Assembly (NCBI GenBank): GCA_951394045.1 | Contig: OX595985.1 | Coordinates: 2,604,001-2,668,000, forward strand | Direction: 5' to 3' | DNA from: Nitzschia sp. DOCU1 | Lineage: Eukaryota; Bacillariophyta; Bacillariophyceae; Bacillariales; Bacillariaceae | DNA: 64,000 nucleotides | In this document: piece after piece, positions 1,606-42,597 of the stretch | Layout: the number at the start of each line of letters is the position of its first letter | Position numbering within the stretch: the first letter of the stretch is position 1 | Made by a program: the position numbers and the translations under genes | Notes under the pieces: model-generated | Told to the model about the DNA's origin: nothing | What the model saw: the letters and a program-made list of their open reading frames with translations, nothing else | Database searches by the model: none

Positions 1606-2874
1606 ATGAATAGGCGGAATAGGAACGGAACACACGGGTTCAATAAGGTGCTGCTGTGCGCTCTTTGTATTCAGCTAGGGCATTGCGCGAGATCTTCGAC
1701 GACGATCACTCACCCAGCCCGTTCATCAAACGGAGACTCCTCGGTCCCAAGCCGAAGATTGGACGGCTACGACGATAGCAACGGATATGGTGGATATGGA
1801 GATTCCTATGGGTATGGCTATGACTACGGTTATGGTTATGGTTATGAGTCTGGTTATGGTGACGAGGATGGAACAGCATTGGCTTCAGGTGATGGTGCAG
1901 AGACGCCCTCACCAACAGGAAGCTCAAAGCCTACACCCGCCCCTAGCCCTCATCCGACCAATGATGTCTGGACTGTTGTTAAAGACGCAGAGGGTTTTTT
2001 AGATTCAACGTGCGGTGTCGTCACAGAAGACCGATCAGGCAGCTATTCATTTACAGAGACGATTGACTTTGAGTACTACTTGTATCTTTCCGATGACGCG
2101 ACGCTCGCTGACGCGGAGCAAGCAGCCGCGACTGCGGAAACCCTTTTACATGCAGCTCTGACCAGAAGCGCAATTGTTTGCAACGACGACGATGATGGTA
2201 AAGTAGTGACTGCGCTTTCCTCAAAGGGAATGGATGTTGTAATGGGTGAATGCAATGGCATTACACCAGAGGCCTCGCAATCATGTTGGCAGATCAGCGC
2301 GCAAATAACCGCAACCATTGCTAGCTCCCTATCATATTCTCAGCTGGTGGACTTATTCTCTGTCTGGATCGAAGAATCATTGGAAAAGATTGCGGATGGG
2401 AGTACAATTTTGAAAGCTGATTTCCAAGGTTTCCACGTCAGCGACGGCAAGGAGACTGCCGGTACCGATGTCACCTCGTCTTCAAGTACGAGCGTATCAG
2501 AATTGAATCTCTCAAATATTCCGGCTGATGCGAATACACGCCAACCGCTGGGGTTACTGGTGCTAGCGCTTGCCGCCATTGTGTTGTTGCTACTGACAGC
2601 TTTCCTTGTCCGTCGGAGAAATCGGCGCCAAAAGGCTTTTGTCAAATATGTACACGATGCCCATGCTTTTGAGGTGGACGACCCGCCCATTCGCCCGGAT
2701 GAGATCGAACCCCGAGCAATTGTGGTGAACGACGATGAGCAATTGGCTGACCCGGACTCTGAATTAGTACGGGGTTTGGAGGATCCATGCCATGACCCAA
2801 GAAAATGCTGTATCGAGAAGTGTGAACTTTGTCGACAGCTCCATCCTACTGTATTCGTCCCGGTGAGAAGATAA
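1606..2874 (+). CDS. Single-pass membrane protein with Tyr-Gly-rich repeat
   Basis: A 422-residue single-exon protein. The N-terminus (basic start, then VLLCALCIQLGHCARS) resembles a signal peptide. Residues about 50-85 form a low-complexity stretch of repeated Tyr-Gly and Gly-Tyr pairs with Asp, Glu and Ser. A Pro/Ser/Thr linker follows, then a folded region of about 160 residues with several Cys. One transmembrane helix lies near residues 308-330 (LLVLALAAIVLLLLTAFLV), followed by RRRNRRQK, so the C-terminus should be cytosolic. The tail ends in a Cys-rich patch (KCCIEKCELC). This type I layout suggests a cell-surface or vesicle protein; YG-rich stretches are known from cell-wall and adhesive proteins, but no function can be assigned. 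Confidence 0.75.
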   Translation: MNRRNRNGTHGFNKVLLCALCIQLGHCARSSTTITHPARSSNGDSSVPSRRLDGYDDSNGYGGYGDSYGYGYDYGYGYGYESGYGDEDGTALASGDGAETPSPTGSSKPTPAPSPHPTNDVWTVVKDAEGFLDSTCGVVTEDRSGSYSFTETIDFEYYLYLSDDATLADAEQAAATAETLLHAALTRSAIVCNDDDDGKVVTALSSKGMDVVMGECNGITPEASQSCWQISAQITATIASSLSYSQLVDLFSVWIEESLEKIADGSTILKADFQGFHVSDGKETAGTDVTSSSSTSVSELNLSNIPADANTRQPLGLLVLALAAIVLLLLTAFLVRRRNRRQKAFVKYVHDAHAFEVDDPPIRPDEIEPRAIVVNDDEQLADPDSELVRGLEDPCHDPRKCCIEKCELCRQLHPTVFVPVRR

Positions 2875-3696
2875 AACATGGGGCGTTGCTTCTTGCTCTT
2901 CGAGCATAGAAGGCGACCTATATTATACAAGACAGTGGGGTGGCACAATCATCTCATCTGTTTCTCGAAAGATTGCTTGCAGTTGCGATCAAAACCCATA
3001 GAACGCGTTTGCACTTCACTTAATAGTAGATAATTCCTCAAGACTTGGTCACGACCAGACAAACTAACGTTATATCTATTGCCGGAATGCGTCTACATTT
3101 CAACGAGTACGAGAGGAGGTGCGATAGTACAAAAGTTGACCATTCGATATTGCTAGCTAATGGTTGGCGGTGATGGACAGCCCCGTTTTCACTATTCAAG
3201 AGATACTTGGCAAGGAATGGTTCTTGCCAAAATGCATACACGTACAGAAATAGCCGATGCATAATACCTCTCCCGTAGAGGTCTTGCTCGTCTCAGCTAC
3301 CGGTGGTAGCTGATGCTATCATATGCATAGGTATTTACGGAACCATATTAACTATTGTATACATGCACACTATATAGGACCGTAGTATTCTTGTGGTTTT
3401 GCAGTGGCACCGCCTCTCTTTCGTGTCGTTCGACGAAGGTCGGCGAAGGCGACTGACTCGTAAATATGGCGAGAATTCGACTCCAATCAGGTCTTTCGAA
3501 TGGGTTCATTTAGAAGCACTGCGAAAAGGCGAAATGAGCCCCCCACCATGCAAACCCTGCACGGGAGACATTCGAGATTCAAGCAAGCCAGCCGGGCCTG
3601 TAAATTTTTCGCCATCATGGATAACTCTTGTGTGGCGCTATTACGTGGCGTGTAGTTTCGACGGGAACAGCTCGGTGTTCCACACAGACTGCCGCA
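2875..3696. other. Intergenic region
   Basis: About 820 bp between two plus-strand genes. A palindrome-like stretch, AGCTACCGGTGGTAGCT, lies near 3296-3312. Short frames on both strands lack ATG starts or recognisable similarity. Nothing else is seen. Confidence 0.45.
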
Positions 3697-4857
3697 ATGA
3701 TGGATGGCAGCAATCTGACAAACTCTGACGGGGTAAATAAGAACCACAAAGTGAAATACCCTCTTTGTTTCATTCTTTTCATGATGGAGTTTCATCAGCA
3801 AGACGAGTCATCATCTTCCTTATTATCAACCCTTAGTACGAAAGCACAACACCAAATCATGGTATCTCCAATGAGGATGGCCTCGATCGGTGACATTGTA
3901 ACCGTGCAGATGAATCTTACCCCAGAGAATGGACTAATTTTGGAGCCTTTGTTTGATACCTGCGGGAAAATATCTTTTGTACTGGGTGGTGGAAACTACC
4001 TTCCCGGACTTCATGAACTAGTAAAGGGGATGCGAGTAGGAGAGCACGTGAGCGGTGTTTCCATTGACGGCGGCTGGGGTAAACGTAACCCAGATCTTGT
4101 CATTGATGTGCCCAAAAGCAACCTCATCAAGATGAAGAACGTGGACACTATTACTGTTGGTGCTACGCTCAACTTAAAAGGCGGCATCCAGGTTTCAGTA
4201 TTGAAAGTTACAGAAGATACTATAACCGTGGATGCCAATCATCCTTTGGCTGGATCAGGCTACACATGTGACTTGACTGTCTTGGATATCGAGGGGTATC
4301 CCGAGGACAAGTTGTTGTACAGTGATGTGCCAGATGCAAGCGACCATACTCCTCACCTGGAGGTTGCTACATGGGCGATGGGTTGCTTTTGGGGAGGCGA
4401 GCTGGCTTTTATGAGAACACCAGGCGTCGTGGGGACACGGGTCGGATACACTCAGGGAGTCCAGGTGGATCCAACCTATGAAGATGTCTGTCAAGGCGAT
4501 ACCAAACACCGCGAGGCTATTGTGGTTGTCTACGACAATAGAATCGTCACCTACAAAGAGTTGATCAAGGTATTTATGGAGCGCTTGGCGGCAACAGTGA
4601 ATCAATACAAGATCAATCTCTTCAATGACGACGATGAGGACGACTCGCTTCAATACCAGCATGGAATCTACTATCATAACCAAGAGCAACGGATACAAGC
4701 CGAGGAAGCTGTTCGTGCCAACAATAACAAATACAACGTGGAGCTGCTTCAAGCTGCAAAGTTTTACGATGCGGAAGCGTATCACCAGCAATACCTACTG
4801 AAAGGCGGCCAAAGTGCCAGGAAAGGATGCAAGGAAACCATTCGGTGTTTCGGCTAG
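3697..4857 (+). CDS. FKBP (SlyD-like) peptidyl-prolyl isomerase fused to peptide methionine sulfoxide reductase A
   Basis: A single open frame encodes two enzyme domains. The first ATG gives 386 residues; ATGs at 3700, 3781 and 3859 are possible, so the N-terminus is uncertain. Residues about 60-215 match the SlyD-type FKBP pattern: VTVQMNLTPENG, then GGGNYLPGLHELVKGMRVGE, an insert-in-flap region, and a return to VDANHPLAG. From about residue 224 the MsrA fold begins with the catalytic motif GCFWGGE (Cys230), followed by TRVGYTQG, HREAI and YHNQEQ, which are typical of MsrA. Two late cysteines (378 and 384) could serve as resolving cysteines. MsrA reduces methionine-S-sulfoxide in proteins; the FKBP half catalyses prolyl isomerisation, so the fusion fits repair of oxidised, misfolded proteins. 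No clear targeting peptide is seen. Confidence 0.85.
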   Translation: MMDGSNLTNSDGVNKNHKVKYPLCFILFMMEFHQQDESSSSLLSTLSTKAQHQIMVSPMRMASIGDIVTVQMNLTPENGLILEPLFDTCGKISFVLGGGNYLPGLHELVKGMRVGEHVSGVSIDGGWGKRNPDLVIDVPKSNLIKMKNVDTITVGATLNLKGGIQVSVLKVTEDTITVDANHPLAGSGYTCDLTVLDIEGYPEDKLLYSDVPDASDHTPHLEVATWAMGCFWGGELAFMRTPGVVGTRVGYTQGVQVDPTYEDVCQGDTKHREAIVVVYDNRIVTYKELIKVFMERLAATVNQYKINLFNDDDEDDSLQYQHGIYYHNQEQRIQAEEAVRANNNKYNVELLQAAKFYDAEAYHQQYLLKGGQSARKGCKETIRCFG

Positions 4858-19504: not shown

Positions 19505-22500
19505 CTACTTTGATACTTCGTAGCTAGTCACATCGTCCGGTTCAGGTCGAGTAGGCTGATAGACGATCGCTTCGGGATTCATCGTTCCCATTAGAAGGCA
19601 GTGTCCAATATAACTGTCATTGGGAATCTGGTTGCAACATGACGCTCTTTCAAGCTGAAATTCCCAAGGTCCGGTGGTTTCTTCCGGTTCCTTCTTGTCC
19701 GTTACAAAATACAGCCCATCATAGCGATAGTAGGTCTTAGATGCTATTTCTTTTGGGTGGGTGCCAGTGGCTTGGAGCTCGTGGTTGTAGTGCGTTGGCC
19801 GAAAAACACGAATTGGCTCGTGAAGATCACAACTCTTCACAACTCCAAGTGCTCCCTTGCTCTGCTCAACGAAGTACCTGAGGTTAAACAGTTTGTCATG
19901 CCCCAACTTGTCCGGTCTTTTGCCCGACACAACCATGGCGTCGCAACCAAAATCCCTGTTGCCGGATATGCCACGTTGTGCCATGATATGGCCATTCAGG
20001 GTCAACATTTCATATCGGGTGTACAACTTGCCCTCGTCCAAGCCTGGAATTTGGCCAAACTGATGGTCACGACCTTTCCTCGGTGCCAGAGTATCACATG
20101 CAACTCCAGTGTCATTTTCAAATACAACCATTTCCCCCTTGCGGAAGACAAGGACCAGCCGTCTATCGTCCTCGGCTTCGGATGCGCAGGGCATGGGTCG
20201 TTGAGTTTCTGTTCCTCCAACGGCAGCGCCGATGAAAGAATTCTCCATTGCAATCGGGGAGGGGGTAATTGCAGCGGCATCACTAGACCTTGTTGGATTG
20301 GGCGTTTGTGGCTCGGCTGCGGGGGTAGTAAGCACCCGGCGTTTTGGCCTTGGCGCATCAGCCACACCATGAACATAGTGCTTTTGCATTTCACCTGGAA
20401 GTCAAAACACAAGTGAGTTACAATCGCATGCAGTACCACGGACTAAAACGGCGCTCTTACCATCCATTGAATAGCCGTCCCCTGAAAAATTGAGCACTTG
20501 AATCGTTAGACGACATCAGTTGTAAAATAATGCACATCACTCGCATACTAGACCTACCTGCTTCAAGAAACAGCTCGATATCTTCATCTCCGTGTTGGAG
20601 TTCTACTCCTGGGCGTGGCCGAATCCGAACGACACGAATCTGCCTAGTAGGCATTTGGATTATTGCAGCCAGAATAAGCTGTTCACCTTGGTCGTCGTCT
20701 TTGTTGCCGTCATTGAGAAAAAGGCATGGTGTGAGTCTTCTATCACATTGGATTTCGGAATGCTCCTCTAAAAATCTTACCAGCATGGAAACCCATCTTG
20801 TCTTTGAAATCTCGGTACAACACGGCATGGACACCGGTAGTCCATTCAGCAACACCACAAGTTTCCGCCATTCTCTCTGACACTTCCGCGACTCCATCAA
20901 AATTGGCTAACGGAACGCTCTTCATCTTGATCCGTTTACCCAAATACGCATAACCAGGCTGTGGATCTTCAAAGTCTTCCGTGGCATGTTTGTGCATCAG
21001 GAAATGGCAGCGGGGCTCATCGTCTGCGTGGATCTTGTACTGCCGAAAGAAGCCTGCGCCCTCGTCACTCAGCAAATCTTCCGAAACATGCGTGAGTTCA
21101 GTCTCGGATAGCATGGAAGGATAAATCTTAATGGTTCCGCCTCGATGCAACTTCTTCTCCAAACATTTTCCAGCGCCTTCAGAGCTCTTTTTGGGAGCCG
21201 AAAACAATTTGTCTCGACTGCTCCATGTCTCTGTGTTGGCGTCATACGTCTGGATTGTAGCGACGATACGCTCCACCATCGGGTGCTGCGCCATTTCTTG
21301 GTTGGGCGATACTCTAGCATTGGGCGTGGGTTTCGCATGGAATCCCCTTGCAGGCCTGCCAGCCCCTAGAGGACAGTCTTTCAAAGATTTCTTCACCATA
21401 CGGCTTTTCTTTGCCGGTCGGTCCTTTTGAAGCACACTCTTGACTTTTGCTTTAGCCTTGGGCGTGGCTTTGGCACAGGATCGCTTCTTTGCTGGCTTTC
21501 CAGCCGGTAGAGGACGAGAGCGGCGACCGTCTTTATCCGTGAAGTATTTCAAAGATTTCTTTACTACAAGGCCTTTCTTTGCCGATGGCTTTCGGTTCTT
21601 TTGAGGAACACTCCTGCCTTTTGCTTTAGCCTTGGGCGTGGCTTGGGCACGGGATCGCTTTCCTGGCGTTTCAGCCCCTAGACGACGAGACAAGGATTTC
21701 TTCCCCACACGGCTTTTCTTTGACGGAGGCTCTCGTTCCTTTTGAGGAACACCCAATTTTGCTTTTTTGCTCCTGGTATTGCCGGCGGTTCGGGAGTACA
21801 CCGCTGCTTTTATGTCTGCGGGGACGCAAAAGGACACATGGTTGGCAAAGGCAATGCTTCCTCCTCGACCAACACCCAGAGGACCACTTGGCAGCTGCCG
21901 ATGGAAGCTTCTTTGTCCAAAAATTCTTTGATATCGTCTTGCCAACTTATCCTGCACCTTGCCTTGCAAGGAAGTGGAAGGATCTAGATCTGGAAGCTTT
22001 TGTGTCATGGAATGTTCTGGGCACAAAACGGCCAACTCGTTAAATGCACTGGTTGGAGGCAAACACTTCGCATGGTACGCTGAAGGACAAGACAAGCAGC
22101 ACTTTTTGGAAATGAAAACAGCAAGGTGTTTAGTACGTTGAACGATGCGCAGCACGACACAATTCAAGAACCAAACCAACAACAAATAAATCTTACGTGG
22201 AGGCGGCATCCCTTCCTAGATTGATAAATGCTCGTTTGCTTTTTCTTGCCGCGTTTTTCCTTGGCCTCGTCTTCTTTTTGTTCCTTCTCGAGAGCATCGT
22301 CTTGCGTGCACGTCCAGCAATGATGTGCCGGACAAACAAAGGAAGGAACAACACAAGTTGTACTGATGACATCCTCTTCGACACTCCTCGGACTGACACT
22401 GCCAGTACTGAAAGCCTGCTCCTCCACCATCTTGAATGAAACGTTATTCGATGCTAGGCAAGATTTGTGAAAGAAGCGACCACACTCATCTTTTCGGCAG

Positions 22501-23219
22501 GCAAAGACGTCCACGTTATCCTGCCCGTACTCTTTACAAAAGGGACATTGATGACAGGATTTAGTACAGTCTTTGCAGATCCAATCTTCGTCTTCACAAG
22601 GAACCTGAGACAAGCCTGCGCATGGTAAATGAAAGACACGGTGACAGTCTCCGTCGCAATACACTAATACGTGGGCGTTGGGGTCGTCCATCAAGCATTC
22701 CGCCTCTTTGCACTCGGCACAAACCCAATTCATATCTTCGGCTTCGGTACTTTTCGCCTTTTTCTTCTTCTTTGTCTTGGAGTTCTCAGCGCCATTGTTG
22801 TCTTGCAAGCGATGCCTTTTATAGTCCCGAGACTTCTCGTTGTCGTGGGGGCTGCCACTGTGGTTGGACGATGGCTGCCAGGTGCCATCGTCATCGCCAT
22901 CGTCATTGCTAACGATTATGGACTTTTCTGGAGGCTGCTCAAGTTCACCATCCCATGCTTCTTCGTTCGGGCTGTCACTGTGGTTGGACGGTGGCTGCCA
23001 GATGCCATCGTCATCGTCATTGTCGACGACCATGGACTCAAGAGCACCATCCCATGCTTCTTCGTTGGGGCTGTCACTGTGGTTGGATGGTGGCTTCCAG
23101 GTGCCATCGTCATTGCGAACGATTATTGACTTTTCTGGACGAGGCTGCTCAAGAGCACCATCCCATGCTTCGTCCGGCGGCATGATGATGCTTGTGAGGA
23201 ACGAGCAAAGGAGAGACAT
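19505..23219 (-). CDS. PHD-finger / AlkB-type 2OG-Fe(II) dioxygenase / SRA-YDG domain protein, five exons
   Basis: Exons 23219-22197, 22101-20781, 20698-20558, 20481-20461 (21-nt microexon) and 20394-19505 join in frame to 1131 residues; all four introns (95, 82, 76 and 66 bp) are GT-AG. An ATG at 23183 is an alternative start. Domains in order: three acidic EAWDGALE repeats; PHD and extended PHD-like fingers at about 160-375 (CAECKEAEC, CDGDCHRVFHLPC, CGRFFHKSC, CCLSCPSAYHAKC, CPEH, the last spanning intron 1); Lys-rich TPKAKAK repeats at about 480-620; an AlkB-type fold at about 655-860; and an SRA/YDG domain at about 945-1085 (LYTRYEMLTLNGH, QRGISG, YYRYDGLYFV). The AlkB iron motif is H780-x-D782 (GFHADDD), with the distal His at 844 in MDGEMQKHYVHGV. 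The usual second 2-oxoglutarate Arg (TFR) reads TTP. A nuclear role in removing alkyl groups from DNA, guided by histone and methyl-cytosine reading, is inferred. Confidence 0.82.
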
Positions 23220-23501: not shown

Positions 23502-23966
23502 ATTCAGCTTTGGATCTTGCGACCATGGGCGATGAGCCTGTCGATGCCGCGGGGAGGAAGCGTATCCTAAGAAACGCCAAGTCAAACCGATCTGCGCACA
23601 CCGTCGCTTCTTCCGGAGCTGAACTCAAACTCTTTTGGCCTATGAAATGCGAGGTGGCGAGATTGATTGCGGAGTTTTTGGGAGCGGGGGGCGTCGTTCA
23701 TCTTAAAAGTCATAGAATTAAAATGTTCAAATAATTCAGCTTTGGATCGTGCGACCATGGAACGATGAGCCTGTCGATGCCGAGAGGGAGGAAGCGCATC
23801 CTAAGAAACGCCAAGTCAAACCGATCTGCGCCCACCGTCGCTTTTCCGGAGCTGAACTCAAACTCTTTTGGCCTATGAAATGCGAGGTGGTGAGATTGAT
23901 TGCTGAGTTTTTGGGAGCGGGGGCGTCGTTCATCTTAAAAGTCATAGATTTAAAATGTTCACATAA
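23502..23966. repeat. Tandem direct repeat, two copies of about 232 bp
   Basis: Copy 1 starts at 23502 and copy 2 at 23734, both with ATTCAGCTTTGGATC. They stay alike through GAGCCTGTCGATGCCG, CTAAGAAACGCCAAGTCAAACC, CTCTTTTGGCCTATGAAATGC and AAAATGTTCA. Short indels put the two copies in different reading frames. Both could encode the fragment ELKLFWPMKCEV, so the unit may derive from a coding exon, but no complete gene is visible. Confidence 0.8.
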
Positions 23967-24690
23967 TCACAGTAGAAAGAGGCATGTTGTGATACCAATC
24001 TACCGGGAGGGATAATTGCTATTAAAGCAGCAAAAGAGTGCGCGCCATCACCATTACTCCAGCTACAATTCTCTACACCTGAATTTGGGCTCGTCAATGA
24101 ACTTGCTTCTTCTAATAGTGAAGTAATGAGCTATCAGTTTTAGAATGCAAAATATAGCTTGTTTCCTTCGGTCGCTTTCCGATTTCGCCTCATCGCCAAA
24201 AGCGCCTTCGAGGCTCTTCAATAGTCTTCATAGGCTGGGTCCGTCGTATTTGAGTCGTGAATGTCCACGAATGCTCATGAAACTGGGCTCGTGTATTATT
24301 AGGACATTCTGCTACTCTATTACTATTAATATCACTGTTACTGCTACTATAGCTGAACTTTACTAGTGGTGCTATTTAGCTGGTCACCTTGGTCACATTA
24401 TGGTGCTTATCTAGAGCAAGAGCAGAGAGTGAAGCAGGTCGCTAGAGTAGTAGTTCCCATTCAAACGTTTTGTATGGTCAGTACCGGGACAAGTACTTGA
24501 TCTCGTCAAAATATACAGTTTTCTCAATCAAATTGTCGCCTTTCAAAGCAGGATCAGCATAAATCAGCGATGGTTCTTTGGTTTCCCTCCTCGCCACACT
24601 TTGCATTCTTGTTGCAAACGTCGATTCTTGGTGCCGTCGCCCCTTTGGGTAGCAACAGCTACGTCTTCCGACTGTAGATTCGATTCAACA

Positions 24691-35846: not shown

Positions 35847-38800
35847 CTAGCGAAAGTAGCCTTGAGGAGGTGGAGCTTGGTTCTGCGGGTGTTGTTGATA
35901 GGACACTTGTTGTTGCAGTTGCAACAGCTGTTGCCGGAGCGTCTCCGCCACGTCGTTGCTGATTTGCTGCCCGCCCGTTTGGCCCTGCGAGGGTTGTTGA
36001 TGTGGCAATTGCTGTCCGCCCGTTTGGCCCTGCGGATGTGACAATTGTTGCTGCAATTGCAGCAGTTGTTGCCTAAGTATCTCCACCATGTCATTGTTGA
36101 TTTGCGGCCCACCCCACATGGGAGGTTGGGTATTTTGCGGCTCCCTTCTCAAGACATCGATAATAGACTGCTGAGGCGTTGGCGAATACTGCGCCGGCTG
36201 TTGAGAAAATGGTAGCTCGGGCCCGAAATGAGAATTCGGCCATTGGGGAAGCTGCTGTTGGGGGTAGTTCGGGGTTGACGGTATTTGCTGCTGTGATTGC
36301 AGCTGGTGACTGTGATCTTGGAAGTATCCCGGTGTCTGCCCCGACCTGTTGGGCGGTGGAATGCCTCCGTAGTTGTTTCTTTCGGCTGCGTTGAGAGCAT
36401 GGTAGTTATGATCGACTACAGTGGCGTCGCTGAATCCGTTCCATCCGTTCTGGCCATGCGACAGGGAAGGATTATGCGCCGAAGAAGAATAGTAGCACTG
36501 CGGTTCGCGAAAATGCATCGCCTGTGATGAAGTCTCACCGGCCGCAGGTACTTCATAGGAGCGATTTGGGTGGTTATCAAATATCCTATCGAACTCGTCC
36601 GCTTGATCGGGTTGAGAAGGACGGCCTTGCCGTGAAAAATTGAATTCGTTGGTGGAACTTCCACCCGTCGCTTGATGATAGGTGCTATAAATGGATGTAC
36701 GATCCTGCCGTACGTTGTTGAAATTCTGAATACCGTTCAACGTGTCTGCCTGCCCGAAATTGTTCGTAATTTCATGCGACTGAGGGGATCGAGCGTTTGG
36801 ACCGCTAGCGTGCGATGCGGTGACGCTTTGGAAAACCTGCTTCTCGCAATTAGTCACCATGGTTGCGAGATTTTCGTCAGACCGAGACATCATCAAGTCC
36901 TCTCCTGCCTTCTTAAGACGAGCTATGGCAGTTTGTCTCAGCCCACCAAGAAGTACGGATGGAACAGGGTATGTATTGGTTTCAATACATCGGTTCAGCA
37001 ATGCAGTTAAGTCCATCTGGTGCTGCATGATGATAGCGTCAGACTTCTGGTTCCATATCGTCAATTTATCCTGCATTGAATGGGGTGAACTAAACGCAGC
37101 GCCCGTTGCAACTGGCGCTGGATTCAAGGAGCTGCTACCGGGATTGTGATGCCGGCGCTGCAGATTCATCGCGGCATTTAAAGACGCCTGCGCCTGCGCC
37201 CTTGCCTGTGCTTCTCTCTGAGCCTTTGCCGTTGCTTCGGCTCTAGCACGAGCCTTTATCCTTGCTTCCTCCGCCCTAGCTCTTGCCGCAGCTTCCTCTC
37301 GCGCTTTCTTTGCAGCCGCTTCAGCGGCACGTCTGGCCAGCTCTTTTTCCCGTTCTGCCCTGGCCTTATCTTGCAAAAACTTGTTCCGCTTTTCAATATG
37401 CTTGCTTCGTCTTGCGTAGGCATCGAGAACCAACCCCGATATATCAATATGGTAGGATGAAACCCAACGCCCTCTGTTCTTGGCGGAATTCACGACGAAG
37501 TGCTCAACAAGACCATTTGAAGGATCTCGTTGCGAAATTTTTACAATCTTTTGGGTCTGAGTCTTACCTCGCCGCAATGCATTCTCGCACGATTGAATGG
37601 TCTACAGAAAGGGACGAGGGTTAGCGACTCGTAATAGCATCCAACAGATTATGCCTGACGCTTCTCTCGCTTACCGATCGGTCCAAAAACGAGTCAAGTG
37701 TTCGGAACTGGAGAATCAGCTCTTCAAAACTTTGGCATTGTTCCGTCTGCTTCCTCCAGACGTGTGCAAAGCAAACTTGACCAACTTCATGGTGAGACGT
37801 GTAAGCCACGTGAGCTGCCTTCACTACGCCACCTTTTCGTCCGAGACGCCTCATTTCATAGGGTGGTAAGTTGCCCATTGTTGCAAAGGGAATGCGTCCA
37901 CAGATTGGCCACTCCATCTGACGTTGAAACCCTCCTTTCACAAGTTTCTCGACGTTTGGAACCTTTTTCAACCTGCAAACTTGAATCTGTGCCTCGAGAC
38001 TATCGCCAGCACGGACCGCTAACCTTGAGACGGGCTCCAGCGTCGGGGTAGAATCGATTGTCGATTCTGCCTCGTTAACAACAGCAGCAAAGCGACCGAC
38101 AGAGCGGCGACTTCGACGCCTACCTGATGCTATTGTATCCGATTGTTTCTTCTTTGTTTTGTTGTTGTTCGACTTTTTGTTTGATCCATTTGTCGGCATA
38201 GAATCCACGGGTTCACCGATTGCCCCCTCCTGCGAGGGTTGCGAGCCTGCCTCCGTTGGTTGAAAAGTGTCGTTGCTCAAACGCGCATCACACCTATCTT
38301 TCGACACAGCTTCGTCTCTGAGAGTAGGCAATGAGAAGGTTTCGGAGGTCATCTGGTCGACCTGCATTAAGTCGGGGACAGCCTCCGACACCGCAACAGG
38401 CGTGGTTGCCACCGCAGCCGACGTTGCGAGGGGCGTGGCATTCATCTCGAAAGTATCATTTACCGCCACCTCGTTCGATGGTGCGATGCTTCTACTGTTT
38501 TTAAATTTTTCATCGTCCTGGGGAACAGCCGCGGCAAGGGTTTCGGATGGCCAGTGTTCGATTTGCATGGGCTCAGGTGCTTCTTTGGACAACGCATCGG
38601 GAGTGACTTCCACTACCGTTGGTGTTGGGGGATGCATGGAACTTGTCTCTGAACTGGGAGTCGCCAAGGTCTGGTTCGTTGCTGGGTTAGGTGCAGTGTT
38701 TGAACCACCCTTGACGATTCCATCCTTTCTTGAAATAAGCGCTGACATGACAAGTGAGGTCACTTCGGCCTCCGTTACGTCAGGGGCGCATTTGGACGAT

Positions 38801-41800
38801 GCCACAGCGGTAGCTCTCTCTCCCGTCAAAATGGCCGGTGAGATCGTATTAAACCCCAAATGCGCCTCGGCCACATTCGTTGTTGTGTTGGGTTTAACAA
38901 TTTTCGGAAGATTGACCGAAGTAGCTTCATTTGCGGAAGGATCCTTTGCATCCGAACTGACGCGGGCGGCCAAGATTTCGCCATTTACCGCTGGGCTACA
39001 CGTTTTGACCTGTTTCCTCTTGCTTCTCGAAACCAGGAGCGGTTTGCTGATGTGTTCTCGAATTCCCTGGACAAAAATATCCAAAGAAAATCCTTCTTTT
39101 TCGCAAAGTCGTAATATTGACTCAGAAGGAGTTTTCTCCCAGATTCGTTTACGACTCTCGAGCTCTACGGTCCAGTCAGAAGCAAGCTCTTCAAACTGAG
39201 TCCCCTCGTCACCCACGCCTTCTTCACCTTTGGCGAGTGGGTTGTGAAACCACCCCTCATCGAAGGCTCTGGGATGTACGCGGTCGACCAACTGCAACAA
39301 AAGTCGAGCCAATCGATTGATCGACTTTGCATTTTTCACCTTGTCATTCCATATTTCTGCCGTGTTACGGGGTAACCCAGCTTCCCAGAACTCGTCTACC
39401 AGGCATGATTTTCGCAATAAAGCCTCCAGTCGGAGCATGTATACCCTGAAAACATGATGCGGGTCCAAAAGGTTCTGACCGTGCAGCAAGCTCTGCGCGA
39501 TCTTATGATCCCAACAAAAGTCTCTGATGAGACCTTCCGAGAGCCTACTGGTCGAAATCTGGTTGCATTCCGCCTCAAAGTCCATGCTCATCAGCTTTGG
39601 GACCTGTGCGCCACCGACGGCCTTCATCAAGATGGAAATCGGTGCCTTTCTGTACTTGGATTCGTAGAAATTTGGGTCAAACGATTCTTGCGGCATGAGA
39701 TAGTGCCGAATCGTCCGGCCATGCACTGACGAGGACTCGTCTGCTGTGGGGATTTGAATGATAGGCCAGGCCTTTCGGAGTGCAGGATCCAATTTGTCAA
39801 GAAAGCTCAGGATGAAGCTGCGATCCTTAACCCTAGGCGCCTCGCCCGGTTGCTCTACCGTGTCGGAGCGACAAAATACGTAACCATGAACAACAAGGAA
39901 CTGTAGCGACGAGTTTGCACCTGAAACGTTGTTCACTGTCAGGGCCGCTGCGCTTTGCTCGGCCATGCCCATAGAACCGTGGCTTGGAGGAAGCGAACCA
40001 GACATTTCTCCTAAAAACGGCGCCTCAGATGGATTTCCATAGCCAAGCGTAAAATTGCGACGCATCTGCTCCTGACGCAAGGCCATTTCGAGGTCTGCCA
40101 TGGAAAACCAGTCTAGCGACGCCTTAGCGCCACCCCTCAGTGGCCCGAAGGTTGCTGGGTCGACATAGGTACATTCAGGACAAAGCCACTTGTCCGGAAG
40201 CGTTTCACCTAGCGGCATATCAATACACCCCCTGTGATAACTGCGTACGCAACCGTCGCAGCAAAGCAATTCGCCTTCTCCCCCGCATACAGCACATTCA
40301 TCATCGTTCTCGAGATTGGAAAATTCTTCCTGTCGAGGCCAGGTCCCGTAGGGCAGTGAATGGCAATCATTCATCATTTTGCGCTTGCTAAATTCAGCCG
40401 AAATCTCCTCTAACGACAATAGTTCATCAAGGAGAAATTCCAGCATGATCAGTTTTTCCTCAGGAGCCAAGCGATGGTACGGAATATCCTTTCGTAGCTT
40501 CTTGATCGGCTCAAAATGAGCCCATTGTTGCTCATACATGCGTTTCTCAAAGTCGCTTTTCGAATCTTGGGACGCTTTGATTGCCTTGTCGGCGTCCGAG
40601 TCGTTCACCACCTCTAATTCTTTTCCACATACAAAATCGCGCAAAACCTTGGCAACCTCATCTTCCACCTCTAATTGCTTTCGCTTTGGAAGATGACTGG
40701 GTGGTGCCCGTGGAGCAGTAGCTGCTGCCCAACTACCAGCCCTGGCAAGATGTTGCAACATGAATTGTTGCTGCTGCTGTTGCATTTGAAGCCGCGCCGC
40801 GACATATGGGTTCAACTGGGAAGGGATAAAGTTTAACCTTGGATCCAAAGTTCCTTGCCCTTGTATCGATGACAGACCGTTCAGAACAGCCCATCGCTGT
40901 AGTTCCATTTGCTGTTGCTGCTGTATTTGAAGTACCTGCTGCAATTGTAGCACTTGCGTAGGTTGTTGTTGCTGAAATTGTGGATTGGGAGCGCCCACAA
41001 TCGTAGCTGGTTTTTTAGCAAGAGGCTCCGTCGACGCGTCTCCTGCGGCAGGACGTTTGTTCACTGAAGATGTCATTGGGGGCGCACCCGATGACGACAT
41101 GGACCCTTTGTTGCTTGACGACGAAAGGGGCAGCTTTCTTCGATTGTGTAAATTATTCGAGTGCGATGGGGATGGGGTAGAAGTAAACCCGACTTGTGCT
41201 GCTGGCGATGCCTTCTTACTCGATGGAGTAGTAGACCCGACTTCTGCTGCCACCTCACTCGAAGCGTCTACGTTGGGGGTGAAAAAGTTAACGGGTCCTC
41301 CTTTATTCCCTGATTCAGCAGTAGAAGTGGTCTTTTCCCGCTCTTCCTGACTAATAGTATTGCCCACCAAAATGTCCAATGCAGCGTCTGTATTCTCTTG
41401 TTTTGTCGTGGGAGTGGAATGATCCAAACTGGGGCGTATCGGTACTTCCATATCCATAACTTTGGAAGGTGTCTTCATTATTGGCGGCGGCGGTGGCAGA
41501 GATGCTTTCTGGATCGTGGCACCCCGATTTTTGGTAGCCGAGTGATGATTGGTCGGCAAGGTCATGAGCGCTCGACTTCGTTTGTTCGCTTTTTTCTTGC
41601 CACTACCGCCACCGCCACGACGACGTCCCCTGGGCCTCGAGGACCGGCGACAATCGTCATCGCTATCATCGTTATCCTCGTCTTCATCCTCGACATTGTC
41701 CCCATATTCACTGTCTGAATCGGATGGGTCCATCCCAGTATATTCCCGGTTTCGCCCGTGCCGCTGTCCCCGCTCTAGCGGTTTGGGCGGCGATTGCTGC

Positions 41801-42597
41801 TTTTGTTGATGCTGCATTAGATGCATCAATGGCGTTTGCTGCTCTTCTTGTTCCGAGCTTTGATTGCCTTCATCATCATATCCGTAATCATCGTCATCGT
41901 CATCTTCAAATGTTTTGTAATCATATTGTTCCATATCCAGAGGCTGCATTCCCGTGAATCGAAAGTCCAAATGCAATTCCTCATCGTGGAAGCGAGCATA
42001 TAATCGATCGGCTGTCAAATGACAGTAATCATCATAAAACAGCGGCCACGACAAGCCATCCAGATAGGTCAAATTGTCCCCCCCTCGTAACGGCCAGCGC
42101 ACATTATCCAAAGTCCGACGCTTGTGCCAATTCCGACCCTTGGCCTTGAAGGCATAGCCGAGTTGCAATTGCTGGAGCAAGATTCGCAACAAGGCCACGT
42201 GGATTTGTCCCAGCACCTTGTTTGGATACGGCAGATACAGAGCTCGTAGAAATACCATGGGAGTAAAGGGCGAGAGTCGCAATGGTACGCTGAGGGTTCG
42301 TAGCAAGGAATAAGCTGCCATGGCCCGATAGCTCAAGGAGGGATCCAATGCAGATTTGCCCCCACTTCCTCCTGGCAATTGCGATGCCGAAAACTGAGAT
42401 GCGTCCATGAACATGGCTCGCTGACGTTCTTTCAAGTGTTTCAAGAGCTGATTTACATCTGTATCTGTAGCATCAGGGTTAAGTTTGCGGCGTTTGCCCT
42501 TTCGCGGTGGTGGTTTGGAGTGCGGTTCCATGTAAAGCATTGGTGGTCCTCGGCCTTCGCCGTAAATCGACTTTTGAACAAACCGAGGATCCTCCAT
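35847..42597 (-). CDS. DDT-domain and PHD-finger chromatin-remodelling-type protein, two exons
   Basis: Exon 1 is 42597-37675 and exon 2 is 37601-35847. The 73-bp intron (GTAAGC...TAG) joins in phase 0 to give 2225 residues. A DDT domain lies at about 85-150 (AAYSLLRTLSVPLRLSPFTP, then LYLPYPNKVLGQIHVALL). The next ~600 residues are acidic, Ser-rich and Gln-rich, with poly-Gln tracts. A canonical PHD finger follows at about 766-815 (CAVCGGEGELLCCDGCVRSY, HRGC, WLCPEC). The C-terminal part has an Ala/Arg/Glu-rich helix (about 1718-1785) and a long Gln/Pro-rich tail with direct repeats (LRQQLLQLQQQ twice). DDT plus PHD is typical of ISWI-partner subunits such as ACF1/BAZ and plant DDT-PHD proteins, so a chromatin-remodelling or transcription role is likely. 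No bromodomain was found. Confidence 0.85.

What the first reader, a model, noticed from the sequence alone, without database searches (positions are those of the whole stretch)
19505..23219. One protein joins PHD fingers, an AlkB-type dioxygenase and an SRA/YDG domain
Five exons join without a frame break to place histone-tail readers (PHD), a 2-oxoglutarate/Fe(II) AlkB-type fold (HxD at 780-782, distal His844 in MDGEMQKHYVHGV) and an SRA domain (YYRYDGLYFV) in one 1131-residue chain. SRA domains bind modified cytosine in DNA; AlkB enzymes remove alkyl groups by oxidation. The combination suggests a targeted DNA-demethylation or base-modification-editing enzyme. I know of no characterised protein with this order. 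The missing second 2-oxoglutarate Arg (TTP in place of TFR) is a further oddity.
Basis: partly seen in the sequence, partly recalled or inferred. Interest (0 to 1): 0.88.

Follow-up and report, generated by a model that had tools for sequence, protein, structure and literature searches.

The report
Diatom AlkB–SRA enzyme with histone readers
A probable diatom gene encodes one protein that joins histone-reading fingers to an AlkB-type DNA-demethylating enzyme and an SRA DNA-reading domain; the enzyme-plus-SRA core is a conserved family in diatoms and a close relative, and the histone fingers appear to have been added later in this lineage.

The parts
22197..23219 (-). Exon 1 (residues 1-341): acidic repeats, then PHD fingers 1 and 2 and the start of the third
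   Evidence: Pfam
22850..23174 (-). Three approximate repeats spaced 99-120 nt coding the acidic EAWDG..DDDGTWQPPSNHSDSP units
   Evidence: window:22850-23219, repeats D1-D4
22566..22709 (-). First NSD-like PHD (residues 171-218), below its curated cut-off
   Evidence: PF23011 5.3e-4
22323..22553 (-). Second NSD-like PHD (residues 223-299)
   Evidence: PF22908 4.8e-8; NSD3 chain 9.1e-10 for the module
22009..22214 (-). Variant PHD of NSD type (residues 336-372), split by intron 1, below its curated cut-off
   Evidence: PF23004 2.6e-5
22102..22196 (-). Intron 1, 95 nt
20781..22101 (-). Exon 2 (residues 342-781 and first base of codon 782): end of PHD module, Lys-rich linker, N-terminal half of AlkB domain
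21312..21752 (-). Lys/Arg-rich linker made of imperfect repeats (KAKAK..PQK..KKS)
20785..20787 (-). His780 of the HxD iron ligand pair; Asp782 is encoded across intron 2 (20781 plus 20698-20697)
   Evidence: family rows 59 H of 59, 58 D of 58 ungapped
20699..20780 (-). Intron 2, 82 nt
20558..20698 (-). Exon 3, AlkB domain
20482..20557 (-). Intron 3, 76 nt
20461..20481 (-). Exon 4, 21 nt micro-exon inside the AlkB domain
20395..20460 (-). Intron 4, 66 nt
19505..20394 (-). Exon 5: end of AlkB domain and SRA domain, stop codon at 19505-19507
20369..20371 (-). His844, distal iron ligand
   Evidence: 55 H, 1 N, 7 gapped of 63
20141..20161 (-). R914-LVLVF-R920, the AlkB R-x5-R 2-oxoglutarate motif
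   Evidence: invariant; R/R in 55 of 55 ungapped rows
19643..20059 (-). SRA/YDG domain (residues 948-1086)

Best explanation
The gene encodes a chromatin-addressed ALKBH2/3-type DNA dioxygenase. Shown: the one-chain architecture in the DNA, the complete Fe(II)/2OG ligand set, the SRA fold in the window copy and the AlkB fold in a relative, and the family's conservation. Inferred: the NSD-derived PHD module docks on the histone H3 tail; the SRA domain grips duplex DNA and holds a (probably modified) base; the adjoining AlkB domain flips a nearby N-alkylated base, hydroxylates its methyl group with Fe(II), 2OG and O2, and releases formaldehyde and the restored base. The likeliest job is local reversal of 3-methylcytosine/1-methyladenine in selected chromatin, for instance lesions that the genome's own cytosine-C5 methyltransferases leave behind, in addition to a separate canonical ALKBH2/3-like protein that the genome also encodes.
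Against: No activity or binding data. The SRA pocket is remodelled, so targeting to 5mC, and with it the link to methyltransferase by-products, is unproven. A separate ALKBH2/3-like gene exists (L008), so generic 3mC repair may need no second enzyme. Among the recent copies SRA dN/dS is 0.76-1.26 and AlkB 0.48-0.82, consistent with relaxed or diversifying selection. The window's AlkB segment alone finds no solved structure at E<=1; the AlkB fold was modelled on relative P0001, not on the window copy. CpG observed/expected in the window is 0.97, so there is no sign of heavy CpG methylation.
Confidence: 0.45

Rival explanations
1. A TET-like eraser: the SRA flips or holds 5mC (or 5hmC) and the AlkB domain oxidises 5mC, giving diatoms an active 5mC-demethylation enzyme without TET.
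For: PMC8508711 (passages) reports that ALKBH2, ALKBH3 and AlkB oxidise m5C in vitro. C5-methyltransferase genes are present. No Tet_JBP hit in this genome, although nothing rang in the controls either. All 5 SRA hits in the genome are in AlkB-SRA copies. H3-tail readers would suit a promoter-protection role (inference).
Against: The stacking aromatic at the UHRF1 Y466 position (numbering recalled) is replaced (R in 34 of 46, W in 4; Tyr in 80 of 84 prokaryotic/viral rows) and the YTGxGG stretch is lost. The reported ALKBH2 activity on m5C is weak (no more than 9% product in duplex). CpG o/e 0.97.
Confidence: 0.2
2. An eraser for another mark (6mA, 4mC or a not yet described base), with an SRA pocket re-tooled to hold that base.
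For: Remodelling of the SRA signature across the 46 members compared, together with an Asp kept in 46 of 46 and an aromatic kept in 46 of 46, suggests a changed rather than a lost ligand. A table in PMC8508711 lists m6A under AlkB, ALKBH5 and FTO and m4C under AlkB.
Against: No evidence for any such mark in this genome was sought; the register of the pocket alignment is ambiguous by 2-3 residues.
Confidence: 0.15
3. The AlkB-SRA core is a real enzyme but the PHD part is a by-product of recent segmental duplication and gene conversion, without function in this protein.
For: PHD modules sit in 6 places on contig C1 joined to SET (L122, L123), BTB (L121) and AlkB-SRA (window, L016, L017); 2 of 5 AlkB-SRA copies lack it in the 9-kb stretches fetched (L018, L019); 0 of 63 relatives have it.
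Against: Frames are open exon by exon through PHD and core in 3 of 3 PHD-bearing copies (full models of L016 and L017 were not assembled); PHD dN/dS against the two SET genes is 0.25-0.31 (window, L016) and 0.36-0.46 (L017).
Confidence: 0.15
4. Not a DNA enzyme: acts on RNA or protein, or is catalytically dead and serves as a reader.
Against: Complete ligand set in the family, closest folds are DNA-acting ALKBH3/ALKBH2, SRA is a DNA-binding fold.
Confidence: 0.05

Closest known systems
Human ALKBH3 / ALKBH2 (AlkB family, PF13532)
   Different: Fused to an SRA domain and chromatin readers; the residue two places before the conserved Tyr is V 49, I 8, L 1, T 1 of 59 ungapped rows, where AlkB/ALKBH2/3 have Asn (recalled; instead gaps this stretch by two residues); His844 to R914 is 70 residues in the window copy against 16 in P0001; separate clade (100/99) from the 10 other AlkB proteins found in this genome
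SRA domains of TagI, UHRF1/2, SUVH5/6, KRYPTONITE
   Different: Pocket signature GGYxDDxD...YTGxGG remodelled, two residues inserted in most members, following loop deleted (compared with prokaryotic/viral SRAs)
NSD2/NSD3 PHD module
   Same: PHD_NSD, PHDvar_NSD and first PHD; NSD3 9.1e-10; near relatives in the same genome keep the SET domain
   Different: SET domain replaced by AlkB-SRA
TET/JBP dioxygenases
   Same: Fe(II)/2OG oxygenases joined to DNA- or chromatin-reading parts in concept
   Different: AlkB, not TET/JBP, catalytic family (no PF12851 hit among the 7 families)

Membership tests
AlkB family 2OG/Fe(II) oxygenases | PF13532 over curated cut-off | tested here: met
   50.9 bits against 31.2; 61 of 63 relatives at E<=0.01
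AlkB family 2OG/Fe(II) oxygenases | HxD...H iron ligands | tested here: met
   H780, D782, H844
AlkB family 2OG/Fe(II) oxygenases | R-x5-R at the last core strand | tested here: met
   R914/R920
AlkB family 2OG/Fe(II) oxygenases | Oxidative demethylation of N-alkyl bases | not testable with these tools
   No assay
ALKBH2/3 subfamily | Closest fold and sequence among solved structures | tested here: met
   (with relatives; the window segment alone gave no hit)
ALKBH2/3 subfamily | Tree grouping with ALKBH2/3 orthologues | tested here: inconclusive
   Deep branches unresolved; own L008/L007 not grouped with the family (weak support, no named human sequences in the tree)
SRA/YDG domain | PF02182 and SRA fold | tested here: met
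SRA 5mC readers | Aromatic/Asp base pocket (UHRF1 Y466, D469, Y478; residue roles and numbers recalled) | tested here: inconclusive
   Y478 equivalent aromatic 46 of 46; no Tyr at either candidate position for Y466 in 46 rows (W in 4); D469 equivalent depends on alignment register
NSD-type PHD module | PHD_NSD, PHDvar_NSD and PHD-1st_NSD present | tested here: met
   PHD_NSD 33.6 bits against 23.9; PHDvar 24.6 against 27 and PHD-1st 20.5 against 27 are below cut-off; PHDvar 30.7, over cut-off, in copy L017
NSD histone methyltransferase | SET domain | tested here: not met
   No SET in the spliced protein
TET/JBP | PF12851 domain | tested here: not met
   Not among the 7 families found

The most novel reading that the evidence does not exclude
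The AlkB-SRA family is a stramenopile reader-eraser system of its own. A re-tooled SRA pocket holds a base mark other than canonical 5mC, the coupled AlkB domain erases or oxidises it, and lineages plug in interchangeable histone readers (NSD-type PHD, SGF29 Tudor, CW) to choose where. It would be the diatoms' functional counterpart of TET.
Probability: 0.2. Interest if true: 0.88.

Novelty: new variant of a known kind. Interest (0 to 1): 0.66.

Why it matters
How diatoms remove or repair modified DNA bases is little known to me: a diatom DNMT paper (PMC9998398, passages) leaves UHRF1-type accessory proteins to be investigated. Here all 5 SRA hits in the genome sit on AlkB enzymes. The family gives a single, expressible protein with which targeted base repair or demethylation in diatom chromatin can be tested, and it shows one catalytic core with several different histone readers attached.

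Tried and rejected
Two separate genes or a misjoined frame: rejected. Splice sites of introns 2 and 3 recur in 4 of 4 copies with length changes in intron 2, L017 carries PHDs and half the AlkB domain in one unspliced frame, and relatives encode AlkB and SRA in one protein. Intron 1 was matched only in the window by the pattern used.

Bacterial or viral origin of the fusion: 80 genome loci and 4 viral loci were kept (85 genome stretches matched, the best 80 kept). A motif scan found 0 of 84 with AlkB and SRA in one frame; L092 has an SRA-HNH gene and an AlkB gene nearby but separate.

Missing 2OG arginine: rejected.

Dedicated 5mC reading by the SRA: neither accepted nor excluded. Model coordinates are not readable here, so pocket geometry was not inspected; the PDB sequence search with the window's own SRA exon gave only TagI (8.5e-5).

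Tet_JBP search of the genome gave nothing, but its controls also gave nothing, so it does not show absence.

Earlier description: eight library searches; I saw titles and starts of abstracts only, and none named an AlkB-SRA fusion. Searches returned zero papers; lists were cut (3 of 4; 20 of 44; 18 of 19; 20 of 24; 12 of 38). The library holds open-licence papers only. From memory, Iyer, Aravind and colleagues surveyed eukaryotic base-modification enzymes and might mention the pairing; not checked. PMC11065319 was opened for five terms and gave one passage, not used.

The AlkB tree used 12 of 63 relatives, the window (loop cut out) and 10 own AlkB proteins; 12 of 20 inner branches are open and some branches are long, so only the family clade is used. 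The profile search scored only the 7997 candidates sharing most words.

Full report
What is there. The minus strand between 23219 and 19505 reads as five exons with GT-AG introns of 95, 82, 76 and 66 nt and a 1131-residue product. Pfam finds, in order, NSD-like PHD fingers (171-218, 223-299, 336-372), an AlkB domain (666-852, 3e-13) and an SRA domain (948-1086, 4.1e-12). Two of the three NSD-type PHD models are below their curated cut-offs; PHD_NSD and the general PHD model are above. Introns 2 and 3 recur with their splice sites in 4 of 4 other copies and intron 4 in 3 of 4 by the pattern used; intron 1 was matched only in the window. Intron 2 differs in length by 8, 10 or 17 nt between copies (coordinates).

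Active site. In an alignment with eight relatives, H780, D782, H844, R914 and R920 are invariant. Across 63 relatives the equivalents are H 59 of 59, D 58 of 58, H 55 of 56, R 55 of 55 and R 55 of 55 among ungapped rows. The chain therefore has a full AlkB ligand set.

A family. A search of 5.8 billion proteins with residues 640-1100 gave 22 relatives, 21 with both domains precomputed; a profile search gave 57, scoring only the best-sharing 7997 candidates. Of the 63 distinct relatives, AlkB is found in 61, SRA in 54, SGF29 Tudor in 2, CW in 1 and PHD in none at E<=0.01; some of those lacking one domain may be fragments. The Tudor and CW domains lie after the SRA. In a tree of 12 relatives, the window and ten other AlkB proteins of this genome, the family is one clade (100/99). 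A motif scan of 84 prokaryotic or viral loci found none with both domains in one frame.

Origin of the histone fingers. The genome gives five SRA hits; all lie in AlkB-SRA copies: window, L016, L017 and L019 on C1, and L018 on C4. Three carry the PHD module and two do not in the stretches fetched. The PHD module itself was found in six places, all on C1: the three above, two NSD-type genes that continue into a SET domain (L122, L123; SET about 9e-25), and one that continues into a BTB domain (L121). DNA of the window's PHD part is about 75-76% identical to the SET genes and 85% to L121. The simplest reading is that the 5' half of an NSD-type gene was duplicated and joined to an AlkB-SRA gene. 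Synonymous distances differ by part: window to L017 is 0.28 in the PHD but 0.08 in AlkB, so later exchange among copies is likely.

Selection. NG86 dN/dS between the window and the most diverged copy L018 is 0.40 in AlkB and 0.38 in SRA. Against the SET genes the window's PHD module gives 0.30 and 0.26. Among the recent copies (window, L016, L017, L019) AlkB gives 0.48-0.82 and SRA 0.76-1.26. The core has been kept by selection over the longer span; recent copies look relaxed or diversifying, mostly in the SRA.

The SRA pocket. In 84 prokaryotic and viral SRA segments the signature is GGYxDDxD...YTGxGG (Y 80, first D 79, second D 80, third D 83, Y 83, T 78 of 84). In 46 family members (45 relatives that hold YDGLY, plus the window) the first Tyr is Arg in 34 (Trp in 4), the second Asp is Gly in 30 or Glu in 10, two residues are inserted in most, the third Asp is kept in 46 of 46, the last Tyr is aromatic in 46 of 46, and YTG becomes mostly YAA/YAV. 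The insertion leaves the register open by two or three residues, so the fate of the UHRF1 Asp469 equivalent (numbering recalled) is uncertain, but no member has Tyr at either candidate position for the first one. The SRA fold is safe; its ligand is not known.

How it most likely works. Shown: folds, residues, one-chain architecture in the DNA, conservation. Inferred: PHDs bind H3, the SRA grips DNA, the AlkB domain flips and hydroxylates an alkylated base. I favour local reversal of 3mC/1mA, because the catalytic domain is ALKBH2/3-like, because DNMTs make 3mC and co-evolve with ALKB2 (PMC9246332, passages), and because this genome has five C5-methyltransferase genes over the cut-off, not classified further. 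Against this, the genome also has a canonical ALKBH2/3-like protein (L008: ALKBH3 9.2e-21, ALKBH2 2.4e-18). Oxidation of 5mC is the main rival: AlkB, ALKBH2 and ALKBH3 do it in vitro, weakly for ALKBH2 (PMC8508711, passages).

Novelty. Ten library searches were run, eight of them for this pairing; the papers listed, some lists being cut, name no such fusion in title or abstract start. The parts are known kinds; the combination, its conservation in diatoms and a bolidophyte, the remodelled SRA and the exchange of chromatin readers are new to me. I file it as a new variant of a known kind.

Noticed in passing
L121 (own genome C1:1143500-1152000): A chimera of the same NSD-type PHD module with a BTB/POZ domain in one 658-aa frame, on the same contig as the SET and AlkB-SRA versions.
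   Followed up: partly
P0001, P0005, P0008, P0010, P0055, P0056, P0057, P0059, P0060 (N-terminal regions): A recurring small Cys motif (C-x4-C ... W-x2-C-x2-C; two copies in P0010) before the AlkB domain, with no Pfam name in the members scanned; confident fold in the P0001 model, residues about 31-66.
   Followed up: no
window 23552-23967: A direct duplication of about 230 bp upstream of the gene, 88-98% identical in pieces.
   Followed up: no
L092 (Sphingobacteriaceae MAG): Separate SRA-HNH and ALKBH2/3-like AlkB genes within about 2 kb of each other (the HNH and ALKBH2/3 labels are by eye).
   Followed up: no
window 37621-42597 (minus): A 1658-aa open frame with what looks by eye like a DDT/PHD chromatin-remodelling factor (no profile search made).
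   Followed up: no
L018 (own genome C4) 2501-4051 minus: A gag-like retroelement frame, by eye, upstream of the PHD-less AlkB-SRA copy.
   Followed up: no
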